Assembly (NCBI GenBank): GCA_027450005.1
Contig: DAIDKO010000039.1
Coordinates: 1-48,280 of the forward strand
Source: Rhodanobacter sp.
GTDB lineage: Bacteria > Pseudomonadota > Gammaproteobacteria > Xanthomonadales > Rhodanobacteraceae
Reading direction: 5' to 3'
Length of the DNA: 48,280 bases
Shown here piece by piece: positions 6,676 to 17,459 of this stretch. Within the stretch, counting starts at the first letter, position 1; every line of letters begins with the position of its first letter. Position numbers and translations under genes: made by a program. The notes below the pieces were generated by a model, which was not told the DNA's origin, searched no databases, and saw only the letters and a list, made by a program, of their open reading frames with translations.

Positions 6676-8019
6676 ATGAACTTGCACACCGACACCATCG
6701 CCGCCATCGCCAGTGCGCCGGGTGCCGCCGGCGTCGGCGTGCTGCGCATATCCGGGCCGCAGGTGCCGGCGATCGCGCGAATCCTGCTGGGCCGCACGCC
6801 ACGCCCGCGCCATGCGCACTTCGCCAGTTTCCGCGACGCGCAGGGCCAGCCCGTCGACCATGGCCTGCTGCTGCACTTCCCGGCACCCTCCTCCTACACC
6901 GGCGAGCATGTGCTTGAACTGCAGGGCCACGGCAGCGCGGTGCTGCTCGACACCTTGTTGCACCGTGTCTGCGAACTCGGTGCGCGGCTCGCGCGCCCTG
7001 GCGAATTCACCGAGCGCGCCTTCCTCAACGGCAAGCTCGACCTTGCACAGGCCGAGGCCGTGGCCGACCTGATCGCCGCGCGCTCGCAAGCCGCTGCCCG
7101 TGCCGCCCTGCGCTCGATGGAAGGCGTGTTCTCGCGCAGGGTCGAGACCTTGCTGCAGGCGCTGGTGGCCCTGCGCGTGCACGTCGAAGCGGCGATCGAC
7201 TTCCCGGAGGAGGAAATCGACTTCCTGGCCGACCCTGCCATTGCCGCGCAACTCGCCGCACTGCGTGAACAGCTGGACGAACTGCTGCGCGAGACGCAAC
7301 GCGGACTGCGTCTCACCGACGGCTTGCGCGTGGCCATCGTTGGCCGGCCGAATGCAGGCAAATCGAGCCTGCTCAATGCACTGGCCGGCAACGAACGCGC
7401 CATCGTCACCGCCATCGCCGGCACCACCCGCGACGTGCTGCGCGAGAGCGTGTCGCTGGACGGCATCGCGCTGGAGCTGGCCGACACCGCCGGCCTGCGC
7501 GAGACCGACGACGAAGTCGAACGCGAAGGCGTGCGCCGCGCGCACGGTGAACTCGAGCGCGCCGACGTCGCGCTACTGGTCACCGATGACCAGCACGCGA
7601 ACACCGACCTCGCCCTCTTCGCGCACTTGCCAGCGGACAGCGAACGACTCGTGCTGGTCAACAAGATCGATCTCGCCCACGCCGCACCAAACGCGGAAAC
7701 CCGCGATGGCATCCGCTGGCTGTGGGCTTCCGCGAAAACGGGCGAAGGCCTGGATGCCCTGCGCGAACACCTGAAGCAACTCGCCGGTGCCGGCAGCGGC
7801 GAAGGCGCCTTCAGTGCGCGCCGCCGCCACGTGCTTGCGCTGGAAACCGTGCGCAAGCACCTCGGCCGAACCGACTATGCCCTCGCGGTCGGCCGGGCTG
7901 GCGAACTTGCCGCCGAGGAATTGCGCCAGGCCCAGCATGCGCTGGGTGAGATTACCGGCAGCTACAGCAGCGACGACCTGCTCGGTGCCATCTTCGGTTC
8001 GTTCTGCATCGGAAAATAG
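6676..8019 (+). CDS. mnmE: tRNA uridine-5-carboxymethylaminomethyl modification GTPase MnmE
   Basis: The 447-residue GTPase works with MnmG to modify U34 of several tRNAs. It has an N-terminal formyl-THF-binding domain, a helical domain, an inserted G domain (G1 GRPNAGKSS near residue 224, the TTRD switch, DTAGLR, and NKID) and the invariant C-terminal CIGK. The ATG gives MNLHTDTIAAIASAPG, the normal start. MnmG is not in this window although the two are often neighbours at oriC. The 3' end is a known integration site for SGI1-type islands, and non-core sequence begins just after its stop codon. Confidence 0.97.
   Translation: MNLHTDTIAAIASAPGAAGVGVLRISGPQVPAIARILLGRTPRPRHAHFASFRDAQGQPVDHGLLLHFPAPSSYTGEHVLELQGHGSAVLLDTLLHRVCELGARLARPGEFTERAFLNGKLDLAQAEAVADLIAARSQAAARAALRSMEGVFSRRVETLLQALVALRVHVEAAIDFPEEEIDFLADPAIAAQLAALREQLDELLRETQRGLRLTDGLRVAIVGRPNAGKSSLLNALAGNERAIVTAIAGTTRDVLRESVSLDGIALELADTAGLRETDDEVEREGVRRAHGELERADVALLVTDDQHANTDLALFAHLPADSERLVLVNKIDLAHAAPNAETRDGIRWLWASAKTGEGLDALREHLKQLAGAGSGEGAFSARRRHVLALETVRKHLGRTDYALAVGRAGELAAEELRQAQHALGEITGSYSSDDLLGAIFGSFCIGK
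8002..8015 (+). other. possible left attachment core at the mnmE 3' end
   Basis: TTCTGCATCGGAAA lies in the last codons of mnmE, the position of the attB used by SGI1-type elements. A 12-of-14 match (TTATGCATCGGTAA) lies at 11934-11947 on the other side of the accessory genes. No integrase gene is present, so the role is inferred. Confidence 0.35.
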
Positions 8020-8022
8020 CGG

Positions 8023-8050
8023 GACGTCCGGGGAGTTCCAGAGACGTCCG
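8023..8050 (+). repeat. short direct repeat after mnmE
   Basis: GACGTCCG occurs at 8023-8030 and 8043-8050, 20 bp apart, each followed by a similar GAG-containing stretch. Spaced direct repeats beside an attachment core can be integrase arm sites; this is an inference. Confidence 0.4.
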
Positions 8051-8066
8051 CCGAGCGTTCATGAAT

Positions 8067-8120
8067 TGCCTATTATTTAGGCATTTCGCCCAACATTCGT
8101 CTATTGCCCACCGCGGGCAA
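8067..8120. repeat. two short inverted repeats in the mnmE-island gap
   Basis: TGCCTA-TTATT-TAGGCA spans 8067-8083, and TTGCCC-ACCGC-GGGCAA spans 8104-8120. Both are perfect 6-bp arms with 5-base centres. Neither is followed by a clear T-run. They could be operator-like sites, weak terminators for the converging mnmE and island transcripts, or remnants of an attachment region. The first lies in an unusually AT-rich patch. Confidence 0.5.
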
Positions 8121-8189
8121 CCGCGTTACCGTGCCCCGAAAGGGGCCCCCATGGAGGGGTGACATCTGCTGGTTCACCGAGAGCGGGGA

Positions 8190-9194
8190 CTAGCCGCGTC
8201 GACCAGTTCCGGTGTCGACATGCGCCATGCGAAGGACATTCTCGCGATGAAAATCCAGATAACACCGCTGACCTTCTGAGAATGCGCCGACGTTGATTCG
8301 ACGGTCGTGGTCAATACCCATGCGCTTCATCGACATGGGGTCCGCCACAGGCGAGACGATCAACTGCCCGGAGTCTTCAAACGATATAAAGCCTTTGTCG
8401 AACAAGTGATCCACCGTTGGCGTCAAGAGCAGCCCGTTCTCGCCGTCAAGCCGCTGTTCGTTGTTGCTGTCGCGCCAAGGGCGTACGTGGCTCGCGACTA
8501 GGTGCTCCATGCGCTCCACCCTCGTTATCCGACAGGCGCGCTCGATCGCGCGAACATTGTCCCGAAACTGCCCCTGGCCTCGACGCGCCAGCACGAGCGC
8601 AGAACGCTCAGTTTCGCGAATGGCAACGTCTGTCGTGATTTCAATCTCCAACCGCCGTTCCCATTCCTCGGTGTCTTGCTCCGGCGCGGGCGTATCGCGC
8701 TCGATTTTGCTGACTTCGTGACCTAAATCCTCAGCGCGACTTGCTTCCGGGCCGATCAACGATTTTAGTGTCGTTGCCAATGGTGCGCTGACGGCTGTCA
8801 GATAAACACTTTGCAGCCCGTTGCCCTCGAGTGTGAGAGGCGCGTACTTGTTCGCAAGATCAGGCCGCAGCCGGGCAATGTGGTCCTTAGGGCGGACGGC
8901 GTTCGTGAGTCGTTGCCAGCGAACACCCACACGCCAGCCGATTTGGCTCCAGTTGGTGCCGGCGGTGCCGAACTCCTCCGGCTTGGGGCTCTCGCGACAA
9001 TAGCCACTAACGACACCGAGCGCTGCAATTCGCGTTTCGAAGAACGAAAACACGATGTCGCCGGGCGCGACCTCGCGCATGAACTCGTAGAACGGATTGC
9101 GGTTACCGTTCTTGTTGCGCTTGGGTGACCAGAGGTAGCCGCCCTCGATTTCCTGGCGGAACGTCTGATTCTGGTTGACCCACCAGTAGCGCAT
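8190..9194 (-). CDS. EVE-like/HNH endonuclease, last gene of a putative defence operon
   Basis: A 334-residue protein. Residues 1-115 (MRYWWVNQNQTF..GGYLWSP..PGDIVFSF..AALGVVSG) resemble the EVE/PUA-like fold used to read modified bases. Residues about 231-270 match the HNH_2 type: H-ASHV-P-W, then NGLLLTPTVDHLFDKG, with the catalytic His and the Asn/His pair in place. Such fusions are type IV-like, modification-dependent restriction enzymes. The ATG lies 3 bp after the stop of the helicase gene, so it is translationally linked. Base composition is visibly lower in GC than the housekeeping genes around it. The nuclease class is firm; target and partners are inferred. Confidence 0.85.
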   Translation of the reverse strand: MRYWWVNQNQTFRQEIEGGYLWSPKRNKNGNRNPFYEFMREVAPGDIVFSFFETRIAALGVVSGYCRESPKPEEFGTAGTNWSQIGWRVGVRWQRLTNAVRPKDHIARLRPDLANKYAPLTLEGNGLQSVYLTAVSAPLATTLKSLIGPEASRAEDLGHEVSKIERDTPAPEQDTEEWERRLEIEITTDVAIRETERSALVLARRGQGQFRDNVRAIERACRITRVERMEHLVASHVRPWRDSNNEQRLDGENGLLLTPTVDHLFDKGFISFEDSGQLIVSPVADPMSMKRMGIDHDRRINVGAFSEGQRCYLDFHRENVLRMAHVDTGTGRRG

Positions 9195-9197
9195 GGA

Positions 9198-11129
9198 CTA
9201 CGGCTCGACCTTTGCCTTGTCGGCGACCATAGGCAACTCGATGTCCGGCTGCACCTGTTCGTGCCGGTGAGCAATCCTCGCGCGAAAGTAGGAGGCCGTC
9301 TCGGGATCCGTGCAGTAAATGTAGCAACCCTTCATCCCGCGGGTCATCAGGGTCCGATACGTGTTCTTGATGATGGTGGCTGCTTTGTTCCGCGCTTCTA
9401 TCGGATTCTCGCGCAGTTCCTTCTTGTAGCCCTTGATGGATTGGTCCTGTCGTGAGCGCTTCTCAGGTCGGGTCACAATCTGGCTATCGCGTGCGATCAG
9501 GTCCGGTCCAACGATGACACCGATGTAGTCGACCTCGAGTCCCTGGCAGGTGTGGATGCAACCGATCTGTTCCACCGATCGTTCCGCCGTGATCCAGAGG
9601 CCACCGTCCTGGGCGAGGTTCCACTGCATCTCGAAACCTTTCTCCGGGATTATGACATCGAATGCACTCGGCTCCTTCTTGCTCTTCCAGTCCCAGCAAT
9701 AGCCGGCCACCATGCGGGCTCGGTTGTTCGCGCGATTCTTCTCCTCGATCAGGCGCCGGACTTCATTGGGTGATTCGAACACCTGGAAATCGAACTCTTT
9801 GGCTCCCAGCATAGGATTGGCGGTATCTCGAATGCCGAGCACCTGGTCCAGCCACGCGAGATATCCATCGGAGCCCGAGCAGCGAAACTGAGAGGCGAGC
9901 TTCAAGTGCGTCACCGCAGCGCCCGCCTTCTGAGCCCACGCCTCGATCTCAGACATCCGGCCGATGTCCTTCCAAGTGACGCGCTGGTCCTCGTCGATAA
10001 AAAATACGGCGCAGCGCGTGGCGCGGATGATCTCCTCGATCTGGTTATTGCCGAGATTCGAGTAGAGACCGGATTTTTCATTCAGCCGATGTGCCTCGTC
10101 CACAATCAGTGCATCGAAGGTATCGGTGGGCGTCTCGATGAATTCGCCGGATCCGGCAAATAGGCTCGAGATATGGGAGCGGCGGTAAGACCCAGAGAGT
10201 GTTTGTTCGAAGACGGCGCGCGGTGCGCGGTTCTTGGTCACGTACTTGGCCATCAGGCGCTTGGCGGTGAGCGCAGTCAGCAGGTTGATGGCAACCACGG
10301 ACTTTCCGGTGCCTGGACCTCCATCGATGATGATGACGCGCTTCGCGCCCTCGGAGGCCTCGATTGCCTCGGCGAAGACCGTCTCGTGAGCCACCTTCTG
10401 GTCATCGATCAACACAAATTCGCGCTTGCCGTCCAGCATCCCGACGAGCGCATCGATCAGTCGGCGGGAAGGCCGGATCCTGCCGTTCTCGATCTGCACT
10501 ATGAGGTTACCGCGATCACCTCGCCGGACATGTCGGGCGATAAAGGCGCGGAGGCGCTCGCGCTCGGTCTGCCCAGAAAGAAAGATCGGTGCCTTCTCGA
10601 CATAGGACTGATAGCGCGGGTCATTCAGGACCGCGCCATCGACAAAGTTGTGAAGATAGGCGCAGGGCTGCAGCGGAACCTCCCGCGAGTAGACCTCTTC
10701 GTTGAAGTTGCGCAGCAGCTCTGCATAGGACCAGGCCTGATAGGACGGGTGGCTCGTATCCGACTCGCCTCCGGCGAACCGGGTTCTTACGAGCCCGTCC
10801 TTCTGGGTGACGCTTGCGCTCTCCCACTGCTTCAACTCGACGATGATCAGCTTGCTGCGGTCCTGCTCGTCGATGCCGGTCAGCAACAGGTCAATACGCT
10901 TTGCGGTTTGCGGAATGACGTATTCGATGGCGACGCCACAGTCGTCCGGGATCGACTCATGGCGCAGCACCTTGGCCATCGCTACCAAGGACTCCCTCCA
11001 TGCGCGTATCTCGGACTCGGCGACCCGGTGCCCGGTACGGTCCTGGTACGCTTTGAGCACGATGGTCTCGATGTCATGACCGAAAGCGTCATTCAGGAAG
11101 CCGTCCTTGGTGGATCGGTAGATGATCAT
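9198..11129 (-). CDS. nuclease-helicase fusion of the DUF2075 family
   Basis: A 643-residue protein. The first about 200 residues carry a PD-(D/E)xK-like pattern: D80 in KRIDLLLTG, then E98 and K100 in LIIVELKQW. A P-loop DNA/RNA helicase domain of the DUF2075 (Schlafen group 3-like) type follows: Walker A GGPGTGKS (270-277), Walker B ALIVDEAHR (340-348), a later HTCQGLEVDYIGV motif near 560, and RTLMTRGMKGCYIYC near 595. The nuclease half is a motif-level reading. The gene starts 15 bp after the MazG-like gene and stops 3 bp before the HNH gene, on the same strand. Composition differs from the core genome. It is the likely motor and cutter of the three-gene module. Confidence 0.85.
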   Translation of the reverse strand: MIIYRSTKDGFLNDAFGHDIETIVLKAYQDRTGHRVAESEIRAWRESLVAMAKVLRHESIPDDCGVAIEYVIPQTAKRIDLLLTGIDEQDRSKLIIVELKQWESASVTQKDGLVRTRFAGGESDTSHPSYQAWSYAELLRNFNEEVYSREVPLQPCAYLHNFVDGAVLNDPRYQSYVEKAPIFLSGQTERERLRAFIARHVRRGDRGNLIVQIENGRIRPSRRLIDALVGMLDGKREFVLIDDQKVAHETVFAEAIEASEGAKRVIIIDGGPGTGKSVVAINLLTALTAKRLMAKYVTKNRAPRAVFEQTLSGSYRRSHISSLFAGSGEFIETPTDTFDALIVDEAHRLNEKSGLYSNLGNNQIEEIIRATRCAVFFIDEDQRVTWKDIGRMSEIEAWAQKAGAAVTHLKLASQFRCSGSDGYLAWLDQVLGIRDTANPMLGAKEFDFQVFESPNEVRRLIEEKNRANNRARMVAGYCWDWKSKKEPSAFDVIIPEKGFEMQWNLAQDGGLWITAERSVEQIGCIHTCQGLEVDYIGVIVGPDLIARDSQIVTRPEKRSRQDQSIKGYKKELRENPIEARNKAATIIKNTYRTLMTRGMKGCYIYCTDPETASYFRARIAHRHEQVQPDIELPMVADKAKVEP

Positions 11130-11144
11130 CTGTGCGTGCGAGAT

Positions 11145-11492
11145 TCAGGTATCCGAGTACTTGCGGGCCGATCCCTTGAATGACTCGACGGGATACTTCT
11201 CGGCGTTGCGAACCATCTTGGCGCGCACCGCCTGCAGCAGGTCGACGTCGAGCTTGTCAGCGAGACGAATCAGGTAGATCTGGACGTCAGCGAGTTCATC
11301 TACGACGGCGGCTCGCCGTTTCTCGTCAAGATTCCGGCTCTGCTCCTCAGTCAGCCACTGGAACGGCTCCAACAGCTCCGCAGCTTCCACCGCTAGGGCG
11401 GACGCGAGGTTCTTCGGAGAATGGAATTGGTCCCAATCCCGCGCAGCTGCGAAGTTACGCAAATCGTCACGAAGCTTTACGAGTTCAGACAT
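11145..11492 (-). CDS. MazG-like nucleotide pyrophosphohydrolase, first gene of the putative defence operon
   Basis: An all-helical protein of 115 residues resembling RS21-C6/DCTPP1-type and MazG-like NTP pyrophosphatases, which split nucleoside triphosphates to monophosphate and pyrophosphate. The metal-binding pattern is complete: E36-x2-E39 (VEAAELLEPFQW) and E66-x2-D69 (VDELADVQIYL). A FHSPKNLASAL segment precedes it. It opens the operon that continues with the helicase 15 bp downstream. No strong ribosome-binding sequence precedes the ATG. Such enzymes do general nucleotide cleaning elsewhere; here the context suggests nucleotide-pool control during defence, which is an inference. Confidence 0.88.
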   Translation of the reverse strand: MSELVKLRDDLRNFAAARDWDQFHSPKNLASALAVEAAELLEPFQWLTEEQSRNLDEKRRAAVVDELADVQIYLIRLADKLDVDLLQAVRAKMVRNAEKYPVESFKGSARKYSDT

Positions 11493-11982
11493 AGGGTTTG
11501 CCCATTGTTTGGCGCCAGCGTCGCCGATTTTGGCTGCGCAGGCAAAGTCTTGAGGCTAGCGCTTCCTGGGCGGCCGGGCGGGCGGAAGTGGCACCCGCTT
11601 GCTTGACCACTAGTCCCCTCTGCCTTCGCGGCTGAAAGCAAGAATCAGGTTTGGCTAAACGCTAAAACCAGCTTCGGCTGAATGCTAGTCTGCTTTTCGA
11701 CCAGTTGAGGGGTGTTTGAGGCCCGGCACATCGCCGGAGCAAGGGGTTGCCTGCCGCCGGATCGCTAGCTCCGCGCTAGGACCAAATCCCGCGTCCAGCC
11801 ATACACGCGGCCGCCCTTGGCTCCCCGCCGATCAACGGCACGGTAGGGCCGAAGGGCCGCAAAGGTGCCCCGTCCGCTCTCGCGCTCGACGCCACTCTTT
11901 CAGCCAATCATCGCCTTAGCTAAGCTCTCGATCTTATGCATCGGTAACCGGGGCGCCGCCTACGGTCCGCGCTGCCGCTGGC
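11493..11982. other. 490-bp non-coding stretch at the right edge of the island
   Basis: No convincing gene is seen. It should contain the leftward promoter of the MazG-helicase-HNH operon, but no clear -35/-10 pair stands out. Around 11640-11700 there are partly repeated GGCTAAACGCTAAA / GGCTGAATGCTAG elements. The last 50 bp hold the possible right attachment copy (11934-11947), and the pnuC stop follows at 11985. Mixed composition fits an island/core junction. Confidence 0.6.
11934..11947 (+). other. possible right attachment copy
   Basis: TTATGCATCGGTAA matches the mnmE 3'-end segment TTCTGCATCGGAAA at 12 of 14 positions and lies 36 bp from the first core gene on the right. The 8-base core could occur by chance, so the call is tentative. 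Confidence 0.3.
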
Positions 11983-12555
11983 TTAGGCTGCGCTCGGCAT
12001 AGCCGTATCGCGCAGCTTCACCCAGTGCCGCCAGGACACCAGCGCGTTGAACCAGTACACCGCGTAAAGCGCCGAGGTGAGGTATAGGCCGCGGCTGGCA
12101 TACAGCGGCACGGCAATGCTGTTGACCAGCAGCCAGAACGGCCAGTTCTGCACATGGCGGCGCATCATCAGCAACTGCGCCACGATGCTGAAGGCGAGCA
12201 CGGTGGAGTCGAGGAAGGGCGAGTAGGCGTTGGTGAAACGGCGCAGCAGTAGGCCGTAGCAGATCGCGCCGGCCGCGCCGCACAGCAGTTGCAGCCACAG
12301 CTTGCGCACCGGCAGGTCGGTGACCGGGAGCGCCTCGCCGTGGCTGCCGTGCAGCCACTGCCACCAGCCGACGACGCTGGTGATCACGAAAAATGCCTGC
12401 AGCACGGTGTCGGCGTACAGGCGGCTGTGCAGGAACACGAAGGCGAACAGCCCGCAGCCGACGATGCCGGTCCACCAGGTGTGCACGCTGTTGCGCCCGG
12501 CCAGCAGGATGGACGCGCCGGCCAGCACGTTGGCCGCGAGCTCCAGCGGGCTCAT
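11983..12555 (-). CDS. pnuC: nicotinamide riboside transporter PnuC
   Basis: A 190-residue inner-membrane protein with about seven hydrophobic segments, carrying nicotinamide riboside or a related vitamin into the cell. Family hallmarks are TWWTGIVGCGLFAFVF near residues 26-41, SRLYADTVLQAFFV near 44-57, GWWQW near 63-67, and a C-terminal LYLTSALYAVYWF. The start ATG at 12555 overlaps the stop of rbsK (ATGA), so it is the downstream partner of a translationally coupled pair. The longer open frame upstream is a shadow of rbsK. Substrate is inferred from family. Confidence 0.9.
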   Translation of the reverse strand: MSPLELAANVLAGASILLAGRNSVHTWWTGIVGCGLFAFVFLHSRLYADTVLQAFFVITSVVGWWQWLHGSHGEALPVTDLPVRKLWLQLLCGAAGAICYGLLLRRFTNAYSPFLDSTVLAFSIVAQLLMMRRHVQNWPFWLLVNSIAVPLYASRGLYLTSALYAVYWFNALVSWRHWVKLRDTAMPSAA

Positions 12556-13563: not shown

Positions 13564-14178
13564 TCAGTGCATGTGGCCGATACCGGCGTCGCCGGATTCC
13601 AGCGCAGGCGCGTTGCCGGCCACGGCGAGCAGGGACTGGGCGTAGCCGTCGCCGATGCTGAGGGTGGAGACCTCGTCCCAGGCAAAGAACGAGGCCTGGC
13701 GCATCCATTCCGCGTCCGGGCTGAGTTCCTGCAGGTAGAAACCGTCATCGTCGGTGCTGGTGAGGTGGCCGATGTAGCAGACCTCTTCCTCTTCCTCGGT
13801 GTCTACGTGCACGGCAATCACCGGCGACAGGTCCGCGGCGGCCTTCACGGCATCGCGGATCGAATCCAGTGGGAAGTTGCGCGGCAGGCGCGGGGCAATG
13901 CCCTTGAGCGCCAGTGCCTTGGCCATGAAAGCATGGTGGCGCTCCGGCGATTCCAGCTCGGTGATGTCGCGGTGCCGCATGATGTAGATGCCATCGTCGG
14001 TGATGCCGTCCCCGACCACCCACAGCAGCACGAACTCGCTGCCCACCCCGCCGATGTAGCCGCAGAAGCTGCCGTGCTCTAGTTCGGCACGCCACAAGCG
14101 CACCATGGTTTGCTGTTCCTGCGCCTCGCGTAGCTGGGCCCGCAGGCCGTTGGTCTTGAACTCGAGAATCTTTGCCAT
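13564..14178 (-). CDS. conserved acidic protein of unknown function
   Basis: 204 residues, no signal peptide or membrane segment, rich in Asp and Glu (including a TEEEEEV run near residue 126). It begins MAKILEFKTNGLRAQLREAQEQQ. I recognise no domain. Codon use is strongly GC3-biased like its neighbours, and a terminator follows, so it is a real gene. The body alternates short hydrophobic strands and acidic turns (YIGGVGSEFVLLWVVGDGITDDGIYIM), suggesting a beta-rich cytoplasmic protein. It stands alone between rbsK and hslU. Confidence 0.75.
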   Translation of the reverse strand: MAKILEFKTNGLRAQLREAQEQQTMVRLWRAELEHGSFCGYIGGVGSEFVLLWVVGDGITDDGIYIMRHRDITELESPERHHAFMAKALALKGIAPRLPRNFPLDSIRDAVKAAADLSPVIAVHVDTEEEEEVCYIGHLTSTDDDGFYLQELSPDAEWMRQASFFAWDEVSTLSIGDGYAQSLLAVAGNAPALESGDAGIGHMH

Positions 14179-16574: not shown

Positions 16575-17459
16575 TTACTTTTTCTTGGCCCGCGGATGCG
16601 CCGTGTCGTACACCTTGGCGAGGTGCTGGAAATCCAGGTGCGTGTAGATCTGGGTGGTGGCGATGTCAGCGTGGCCGAGCAATTCCTGTACTGCGCGCAG
16701 GTCGCCGGAAGACTCCAGCATGTGGCTGGCGAAGGTGTGGCGCAGCAGGTGTGGGTGCACATGCTTGGCGAAGCCGCCCGCGAGCGCGAGCTTGCGCAGC
16801 CGGAGCTGCACGGTGCGCGGGTTGATGGCGCCGCCGCCGCGGCCACGAAACACGGCCGATTCCGCAGCCATGCCAGTGGTCTCGCCCAGTGCGCGCAGCG
16901 CCGCCACGGCGTAGCGGCCCACCGGCACGATGCGCGTCTTGCGTCCCTTGCCCAGCACGCGCACTTCGCCACCGTCGAGATCAAGGTCGCTCCAGCGCAG
17001 GCCGACCAGTTCGGACAGGCGCAGGCCGCTGGAATAGAACAATTCCAGCATCGCGCGGTCGCGCGGCGCCAACGCACCATCGCCGCCGGATTCCACCAGC
17101 GTGGCGGCTTCGTCCACGTCCAGCACCACGGGCAGCTTGCGATGCACCTTGGGGCCGCGCACGCCGGCCAGCGGGTCGTGGGCGAGCGCGCCTTCGCGGC
17201 TTAGCTGACGGAACAGGCTGCGGCAGGACGAGAGCAGCCGCTGCAGGCTCTTCGGCGCCAGTCCCGCGCGATGTTGCGCGGCGACGAACTGGCGCAGGCG
17301 ATTCGACTCCAGCGCGTCGAATCCTGCGATGCCCTGCGCCTCCATCCATGCGGTGAGCTTGCCGAGGTCGCGGCGGTAGCCATCCACCGTGTGCGGCGAA
17401 GCTTGCCGCTCGCCGGCCAAGCGGGCGAGCCAGGCGTCGACCTGTTGCTGCGGCTTCAT
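16575..17459 (-). CDS. xerC: site-specific tyrosine recombinase XerC
   Basis: A 294-residue tyrosine recombinase that with XerD resolves chromosome dimers at dif. An N-terminal SAM-like domain (LARLAGERQASPHTVDGYRRDL) precedes the catalytic domain with Arg in SGLRLSEL, HLLRHTFASHML, and the nucleophile Tyr in TQIYTHLDF near residue 273. I chose the ATG at 17459, 7 bp after the DUF484 stop; a start at 17486 would overlap DUF484. A position beside dapF and DUF484 is typical for XerC rather than an integrase. Confidence 0.95.
   Translation of the reverse strand: MKPQQQVDAWLARLAGERQASPHTVDGYRRDLGKLTAWMEAQGIAGFDALESNRLRQFVAAQHRAGLAPKSLQRLLSSCRSLFRQLSREGALAHDPLAGVRGPKVHRKLPVVLDVDEAATLVESGGDGALAPRDRAMLELFYSSGLRLSELVGLRWSDLDLDGGEVRVLGKGRKTRIVPVGRYAVAALRALGETTGMAAESAVFRGRGGGAINPRTVQLRLRKLALAGGFAKHVHPHLLRHTFASHMLESSGDLRAVQELLGHADIATTQIYTHLDFQHLAKVYDTAHPRAKKK

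What the first reader, a model, noticed from the sequence alone, without database searches (positions are those of the whole stretch)
8190..11492. Three-gene operon MazG-like / nuclease-DUF2075 helicase / EVE-HNH: candidate undescribed defence system
Seen: three leftward genes with 15-bp and 3-bp spacing, lower GC than the flanks, inserted just behind mnmE. They combine a nucleotide pyrophosphohydrolase with complete ExxE/ExxD motifs, a helicase with a PD-(D/E)xK-like N-terminus (D80, E98, K100) and an EVE-like/HNH protein. Known: EVE-HNH proteins act in modification-dependent restriction and MazG-like enzymes can alter NTP pools. Inferred: the HNH protein senses modified phage DNA, the helicase-nuclease degrades it, and the pyrophosphohydrolase limits nucleotides or clears modified dNTPs. 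I cannot place this triple in a named system.
Basis: partly seen in the sequence, partly recalled or inferred. Interest (0 to 1): 0.78.

Follow-up and report, generated by a model that had tools for sequence, protein, structure and literature searches.

The report
Mobile MazG, nuclease-helicase, EVE-HNH restriction cassette
Three genes that probably help the bacterium cut up foreign DNA sit on a small mobile insert: a relative of enzymes that cut DNA with modified bases, a DNA-unwinding nuclease, and an enzyme that cleans up nucleotides; the last two occur side by side in many bacterial phyla and we found no published name for the pair.

Summary
In detail: three leftward genes (15- and 3-bp gaps) lie in a 3.9-kb, lower-GC insert behind mnmE. 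It is flanked by the window's only two copies of TT[C/A]TGCATCGG; the left one opens the last 18 nt of mnmE, the site used by SGI1-type islands. Five same-genus genomes show the empty site. The EVE-HNH protein is a full-length homologue of the modification-dependent endonuclease VcaM4I, pocket and catalytic residues kept. MazG is closest to RS21-C6/DCTPP1, 5-methyl-dCTP hydrolases. The third protein joins a PD-(D/E)xK domain to a Schlafen-group-3 helicase.

The conserved unit is MazG+helicase: 69 of the 80 nearest helicase relatives, over ten or so phyla, have MazG in the locus. EVE-HNH is a minority third gene; elsewhere DpnI, Mrr, Shedu, methyltransferase-HNH, other genes or none follow. Twenty of 80 helicases carry a C-terminal LexA-like domain. 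PADLOC has no matching system and our paper searches found no name, though one paper's figure of a predicted MazG system could not be seen.

Best reading: a mobile anti-invader cassette, a MazG/nuclease-helicase core with an exchangeable nuclease. Defence is not shown, and cooperation of the third gene with the core is open.

The parts
8002..8019 (+). last 18 nt of mnmE = left attachment-site-like repeat (begins TTCTGCATCGG)
   Evidence: TT[C/A]TGCATCGG occurs in the 48-kb window only at 8002 and 11934, none on the other strand; sequence; SGI1 attB is the terminal 18 nt of trmE (PMC6531882, passages)
8190..9194 (-). EVE-HNH endonuclease, VcaM4I-like
   Evidence: 6yex, E 2.5e-87 over residues 1-322; pocket P24, W82, Y131 and catalytic H236, N253, D262, D266 conserved
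9198..11129 (-). nuclease-helicase: N-terminal PD-(D/E)xK domain (weakly NERD-like) plus SLFN-g3 (DUF2075) SF1 helicase
   Evidence: PF09848 6.7e-105; motif columns invariant; NERD in 9 of 22 members at E<=1, best 4e-4; model pLDDT 85.3; Foldseek SLFN11, RecD2, RecBCD-D, Dna2 among the first ten
11145..11492 (-). MazG-like pyrophosphohydrolase, RS21-C6/DCTPP1 type
   Evidence: PF12643 1.1e-16; 2a3q E 4.8e-25; ExxE and ExxD motifs
11934..11944 (+). right direct repeat TTATGCATCGG, end of the insert
   Evidence: homology with the empty site of G008 resumes at window 11944

Best explanation
A horizontally moving anti-invader cassette. Shown by sequence: it entered at the mnmE 3' end; its core is a MazG-type pyrophosphohydrolase next to a PD-(D/E)xK/SF1 nuclease-helicase, joined here by a VcaM4I-type EVE-HNH endonuclease. 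Inferred: the EVE domain flips 5mC or 5hmC out of incoming modified DNA and the HNH part cuts it; the nuclease-helicase loads on the ends and degrades the DNA; the DCTPP1-like MazG destroys modified (and perhaps normal) dCTP, so that 5-modified cytosines freed from the invader are not built into the host chromosome, where they would become targets, and phage synthesis is starved. Where EVE-HNH is missing the pair would have to act on its own or with another nuclease.
For: Insert with direct repeats at the trmE attB site and empty sites in five same-genus genomes; L002, L004 and L005 carry their copies beside mnmE too. Patchy: 6 of 398 genomes of the window's phylum, own included; 1 of the 15 genus members, the own genome. 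MazG lies within about 150 bp of the helicase in all 6 of those six and in the locus in 69 of 80 relatives. Downstream genes are often nucleases: 15 of the 45 same-strand genes within 250 bp (counted; L001-L003 are one lineage, and 7 of the 45 were not examined), among them DpnI 4 bp downstream in L080. VcaM4I digests 5hmC and 5mC DNA and was tested by restriction of T4gt (PMC7897488, abstract, passages, section 21). RS21-C6 and DCTPP1 are named as 5-methyl-dCTP hydrolases (passage of PMC10742078). C5-cytosine methyltransferases: 0 of 5 full-length EVE-HNH carriers against 143 of 294 others, one-sided p 0.037. dN far below dS in all three genes.
Against: No activity is shown. EVE-HNH stands without this core in 8 of 8 other places looked at and the core mostly without EVE-HNH; L004 and L005 have the pair at the same mnmE site without it. 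Several third genes are not nucleases (superoxide dismutase L052, DUF3224 L019, DUF4147 L060, HIT L039, glycosidase-like L076). A PADLOC scan of 120 neighbours from 20 of the 80 loci against 120 genes over 100 kb away on the same contigs gave 57 and 48 families at E<=1e-10: more dedicated defence names near the helicase, no clear difference in number, 25 families of each shown. The methyltransferase test is small: with L001-L003 and L054 it is 1 of 9 (p 0.026; the hit lies at a contig end), against 5 of 12 same-genus genomes p is 0.15, and the own genome is 88% complete. MazG relatives occur mostly elsewhere (46 of 299 genomes; settings). Of four plasmid or phage records fetched with the helicase, two lack MazG (L128, L129).
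Confidence: 0.5

Rival explanations
1. The MazG-helicase pair is a defence or damage-response module of its own, and EVE-HNH is an independent type IV restriction gene picked up beside it, as other restriction genes were elsewhere; there is no shared mechanism.
For: Pair without EVE-HNH in most of the 80 loci and at the same site in L004 and L005; EVE-HNH without the pair in 8 of 8 other places looked at; very different third genes.
Against: 3-bp spacing kept in L001-L003 with similarly low dN in all three genes; EVE or a VcaM4I-type HNH beside the helicase in at least four parts of the tree (window group with L006; L054; L010; L040 and L048); in L006 the HNH gene follows MazG by 18 bp in a different gene order.
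Confidence: 0.35
2. The pair is a DNA-repair and nucleotide-pool housekeeping unit: the nuclease-helicase processes broken ends and MazG removes damaged dNTPs; in relatives a LexA-like domain couples it to DNA damage.
For: LexA-type C-terminal domain with invariant Ser/Lys in relatives; fold neighbours RecD2, Dna2, RecBCD-D; DCTPP1 given a possible house-cleaning function (passage).
Against: Present in only 6 of 398 genomes of the phylum, sits at a mobile-island site, next to restriction genes in several lineages.
Confidence: 0.1
3. A stabilisation or addiction unit of a small integrative element rather than host defence.
For: Sits alone inside a 3.9-kb insert with direct repeats; purifying selection.
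Against: No tyrosine integrase in the insert, no toxin-antitoxin family named for the three genes; helicase relatives in only 41 of 72,556 plasmid and 4 of 50,697 phage records.
Confidence: 0.05

Closest known systems
VcaM4I-type EVE-HNH modification-dependent endonucleases (PDB 6yex)
   Same: full-length alignment; counterparts of pocket P24/W82/Y130 and catalytic H224/N241/D250/D254 kept
   Different: here third gene of an operon with MazG and a nuclease-helicase; the words 'helicase' and 'operon' do not occur in the main text of the VcaM4I paper
RS21-C6 / DCTPP1 dCTP pyrophosphatases
   Same: closest solved sequences, E 5e-25, with ExxE and ExxD motifs
   Different: bacterial, beside a nuclease-helicase; substrate untested
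Schlafen-group-3 (DUF2075) helicases; human SLFN11 helicase domain
   Same: PF09848 and helicase fold
   Different: N-terminal PD-(D/E)xK domain where the human proteins have the Schlafen RNase core (recalled); in relatives a LexA-like tail
SauUSI homologues with neighbouring MutT homologues (figure legend in PMC7641849)
   Same: a modified-cytosine helicase-nuclease beside a nucleotide pyrophosphohydrolase (passages)
   Different: PLD nuclease, MutT instead of MazG
Predicted MazG-containing defence system of DefensePredictor (PMC13092281, section 8 read)
   Same: a MazG NTP pyrophosphohydrolase in a predicted, unvalidated defence system
   Different: its other genes are shown only in a figure that is not held, so identity with this pair can be neither claimed nor excluded
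PADLOC PDC-S41, AbiO, Nhi
   Same: partial helicase similarity, 68.5, 43.9 and 41.9 bits
   Different: only part of the helicase is matched and MazG matches no PADLOC model
SGI1-type islands at trmE
   Same: terminal 18 nt of trmE/mnmE as site
   Different: 3.9 kb, no tyrosine integrase

Membership tests
VcaM4I-type EVE-HNH endonuclease | N-terminal EVE domain aligned over its length, with the flipped-base pocket | tested here: met
   P24, W82, Y131 and E15 match
VcaM4I-type EVE-HNH endonuclease | HNH residues H224, N241, D250, D254 | tested here: met
   H236, N253, D262, D266
VcaM4I-type EVE-HNH endonuclease | cuts 5mC/5hmC DNA | not testable with these tools
   indirect only: few C5 methyltransferases in carriers
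all-alpha MazG / DCTPP1 pyrophosphohydrolases | ExxE and ExxD motifs (recalled as metal-binding), sequence kinship | tested here: met
all-alpha MazG / DCTPP1 pyrophosphohydrolases | hydrolysis of dCTP or 5-modified dCTP | not testable with these tools
   seen in print for the mammalian relatives only
SLFN-g3 helicase (PF09848) | score over the gathering cut-off, Walker A and DEAH | tested here: met
   351.7 bits against 24; G270-K276, D344, E345, H347 invariant, A346 nearly so
PD-(D/E)xK nuclease | D...ExK motif in a strand-strand-helix setting | tested here: met
   D80, E98xK100, Q131xxxY135 invariant; strands 79-86 and 92-100, helix 128-142 in the model
PD-(D/E)xK nuclease | profile or sequence match to a nuclease family | tested here: inconclusive
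   NERD in 9 of 22 members at E<=1, best 4e-4; window member 0.038, 14.9 bits against a cut-off of 22.1; no PDB sequence match
a named PADLOC system | all three proteins matched by one system | tested here: not met
   HNH C-terminal half matches restriction-HNH models (77, 45, 40 bits), the helicase parts of PDC-S41, AbiO and Nhi, MazG nothing
SGI1-type integrative island | insertion at the terminal 18 nt of trmE with direct repeats | tested here: met
SGI1-type integrative island | own tyrosine integrase | tested here: not met
   PF00589 over the own genome: 9 matches, one in this contig, at 16623-17123, none in 8002-11944

The most novel reading that the evidence does not exclude
An unnamed, phylum-crossing defence platform: MazG plus a PD-(D/E)xK/SLFN-g3 nuclease-helicase, switched in a quarter of the sampled loci by a fused self-cleaving LexA-type domain that senses RecA filaments, and armed with exchangeable, often modification-dependent nucleases, with MazG protecting the host by clearing modified dCTP.
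Probability: 0.25. Interest if true: 0.85.

Novelty: new variant of a known kind. Interest (0 to 1): 0.62.

Why it matters
If true, a nucleotide-pool cleaning enzyme works together with modification-dependent restriction, which would explain how such a cell survives the recycling of modified phage DNA. The LexA-type fusions in relatives would put a nuclease-helicase under direct control of DNA damage. The pair is widespread and small enough to test.

Tried and rejected
Pfam EVE hit: none at E<=1; settled through the PDB search. PDB sequence search with the helicase N-terminus: none, alone or as a profile. Viral contigs with the helicase: 3 pattern matches, none confirmed. VIA-align mostly covers residues 110-622, so it says little on the nuclease domain. 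PADLOC neighbour test: inconclusive by number. Promoter-like sites in 7900-12100: none. Search for att-like repeats on the far side of the insert in L002, L004 and L005: only the mnmE end itself within 3 mismatches. ORFs antisense to mnmE in L005 and upstream of MazG in L002 were taken as spurious by eye. The N-termini of the HNH proteins in L048 and L006 do not match the EVE profile. An earlier thought that the EVE-HNH genes of G250 and G077 might be broken was dropped: ORFs of 330 and 309 aa cover residues 3-321 and 1-322. Paper searches for pair, triple or domains; one search listed 15 of 51 papers. Opened: PMC12839542, PMC7641849, PMC10853773, PMC12707154 (passages), PMC13092281 (passages and section 8). 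Only open papers are held; no supplements or figures were seen. In one search the script misplaced MazG of L052 (long open frame); one search has it beside the helicase.
Full report
The three genes are real. They lie at 8190-9194, 9198-11129 and 11145-11492 on the minus strand with 3- and 15-bp gaps. GC between the flanking repeats is 0.595 against 0.664 in the window. Against the nearest relatives L001-L004, dN is 0.06-0.11 while dS is 0.59 to saturated for every gene compared, so the genes are kept by selection; L004 has only MazG and helicase.

The insert is mobile DNA. In the window an NMN transporter gene faces mnmE from the far side of the insert. In five of 14 other same-genus genomes (G008, G013, G003, G002, G004) the two genes are 44 or 5 bp apart. 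In the other nine this comparison is not possible: no close transporter homologue next to mnmE, or, in G011, no mnmE match. BLAST with G008, G013 and G003 shows homology up to window 8030, 8015 and 8022 and again from 11944, 12008 and 12007. TT[C/A]TGCATCGG occurs twice in 48 kb, at 8002 and 11934. The left copy opens the last 18 nt of mnmE, which is the attB of SGI1 (PMC6531882, passages). PF00589 finds 9 tyrosine-recombinase matches in the genome, none in the insert; the one in this contig lies at 16623-17123. L002, L004 and L005 carry their copies beside mnmE too, L004 and L005 without EVE-HNH; no second repeat was found in these three.

The HNH protein is a VcaM4I homologue over its whole length, E 2.5e-87. 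The pocket residues in the abstract of PMC7897488 (P24, W82, Y130) and the HNH residues in its section 21 (H224, N241, D250, D254) have counterparts P24, W82, Y131 and H236, N253, D262, D266. MazG is closest to RS21-C6 and DCTPP1, named as 5-methyl-dCTP hydrolases (passage of PMC10742078); DCTPP1 also takes 5-halogenated and 5-formyl forms in vitro (passage of PMC7162842). The helicase has PF09848 and an N-terminal domain in which E69, D80, E98xK100 and Q131xxxY135 are invariant over 44 sequences; the AlphaFold model (pLDDT 85.3) places D80 and E98/K100 on neighbouring strands and Q131/Y135 on the next helix. NERD is matched weakly (9 of 22 members at E<=1) and no PDB sequence is matched. Foldseek, led by the helicase part, lists SLFN11, RecD2, RecBCD-D and Dna2 among its first ten.

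The conserved unit is the pair. The genome scan kept the best 80 of 565 confirmed relatives of the helicase, so counts are of the nearest ones. MazG lies in 69 of 80 loci, in 62 upstream on the same strand within 150 bp (63 with L052); in L037 and L068 only a part is seen at a contig end. The 11 without it include loci with short flanks, such as L063. Loci with MazG belong, by the labels of the tree, to Pseudomonadota, Bacteroidota, Balneolota, Gemmatimonadota, Verrucomicrobiota, Armatimonadota, Kiritimatiellota, Omnitrophota, Melainabacteria and several Patescibacteria-type lineages; the Acidobacteriota locus L065 lacks it. A haloarchaeal plasmid has the pair annotated side by side. Of four plasmid or phage records fetched (L127-L130) two have MazG and two do not. 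In an even draw of 398 genomes of the window's phylum (Pseudomonadota by its nearest relatives, inferred) 6 have the helicase, own included, and all 6 have MazG within about 150 bp, in G105 downstream. In the reverse direction 46 of 299 genomes have a MazG relative at E<=1e-12, so most MazG relatives are elsewhere.

The third gene varies. One search considered 83 loci (L001-L080, L082-L084); 80 had a called helicase ORF and 45 of these a same-strand ORF of 75 aa or more within 250 bp downstream. Of the 45, 30 were scanned with Pfam (L084 through its longer copy L137), 6 were assigned by BLAST (L001-L003, L054, L063, L075), 2 are core genes (MazG in L006, a second helicase in L015) and 7 were not examined (L027, L035, L041, L044, L055, L058, L065). 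A nuclease domain is present in 15: EVE-HNH in L001-L003 and L054, VcaM4I-type HNH in L048 and L010, Mrr in L011 and L062, DpnI in L080, SduA in L026, methyltransferase-HNH in L056, L063 and L075, HNH in L036, PLD-helicase-DUF3427 in L053. L040 has an EVE domain whose ORF ends early near the contig end. Others: ThsB-TIR in L009, SIR2 in L137, ABC-type AAA in L057, HD in L049, BRCT in L069; metabolic, unknown or spurious in the rest. In L006 the order is helicase, MazG, HNH.

LexA-like tails. In 20 of 80 loci (L074 with an interrupted frame) and in 2 of the 6 evenly drawn genomes (G105, G123) the helicase carries a C-terminal domain; 18 of the 20 had been used to build the profile. By profile it matches LexA structures (1jhe 8.9e-7) and by fold LexA again (model pLDDT 85.1); Pfam S24 scores lie on both sides of the cut-off. 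Ser82 and Lys126 of alignment A2 are invariant in its 18 rows, and AAG, or ACG or GCG, stands where the profile aligns with the LexA cleavage region (the cleavage site itself is recalled). L065, not in A2, has AAD there. On the tree the label (19 rows, without L074) needs 11 changes, at least 8 by well-supported branches. Two other proteins in these loci carry the same domain: a PLD-helicase-DUF3427 protein in L061 and a methyltransferase-HNH protein in L066. No ORF of the window matches it.

A prediction tested: a nuclease for 5mC should be rare in cells that make 5mC. Of 299 genomes of the phylum 143 have a C5 methyltransferase; of the 5 full-length EVE-HNH carriers found (taken as the same draw) none has (G000, G048, G068, G077, G250), p 0.037. 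Adding L001-L003 and L054 gives 1 of 9, p 0.026. Against 12 same-genus genomes, 5 of which have one, p is 0.15. The carriers include incomplete assemblies. This is weak support.

Defence context: PADLOC matched neighbours with RTasRmuC, Zac, ZorE, SduA, MzaA, HEC-01 and PD-Lambda-2 names and controls mainly with PD-T4-6, mads and PDC-S31 models and GlgB, but family totals were 57 and 48, so this stays suggestive. A Hymenobacter plasmid has a restriction-modification set beside a helicase of the family, without MazG.

In print: no paper found by our searches names the pair or triple. DefensePredictor (PMC13092281, section 8) highlights a predicted system with MazG; its figure is not held, so it may or may not be this pair. 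The EVE survey PMC7641849 mentions HNH once and MazG not at all in its main text.

Conclusion: a mobile cassette whose parts point to restriction of foreign DNA; the pair is the widespread core for which we found no name, and EVE-HNH is one of several exchangeable partners. Mechanistic coupling and defence remain to be shown by experiment.

Noticed in passing
C-terminal 180 aa of the helicase in L007, L009, L011-L013, L022, L040, L060, L066 and others: LexA/UmuD-like S24 domain fused to the nuclease-helicase, with Ser/Lys dyad and cleavage-site-like AAG or ACG.
   Followed up: yes
L061:10259-13708 and L066:4279-6567: A PLD-helicase-DUF3427 (SauUSI-like, name recalled) protein and a methyltransferase-HNH protein carry the same S24 domain near the MazG-helicase genes.
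   Followed up: partly
L056, L063, L075, gene directly after the helicase: A 560-aa protein (methyltransferase plus HNH in L056, the other two by BLAST) follows the helicase with a gap of 0.
   Followed up: partly
L080:9874-10647: DpnI-family endonuclease 4 bp after the helicase in a Parcubacteria genome.
   Followed up: partly
L015 and L129: A second, diverged helicase of the family (about a third identical to the window's) stands directly behind the first.
   Followed up: no
L204:6067-8051; L198:1400-4556; L196:5925-7193: MazG relatives overlap an RtcR-type sigma-54 activator gene, precede an N6 methyltransferase gene, or form the C-terminus of a 422-aa protein.
   Followed up: partly
L130 (record PP438423.1, Microcystis phage Mwe-JY31): A 22-kb record filed as a phage genome carries the MazG-helicase pair among genes annotated as hypothetical.
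   Followed up: no
window 13564-14178, minus strand: A 204-aa reading frame without a Pfam match above cut-off, near a PfkB kinase and an NMN transporter.
   Followed up: no
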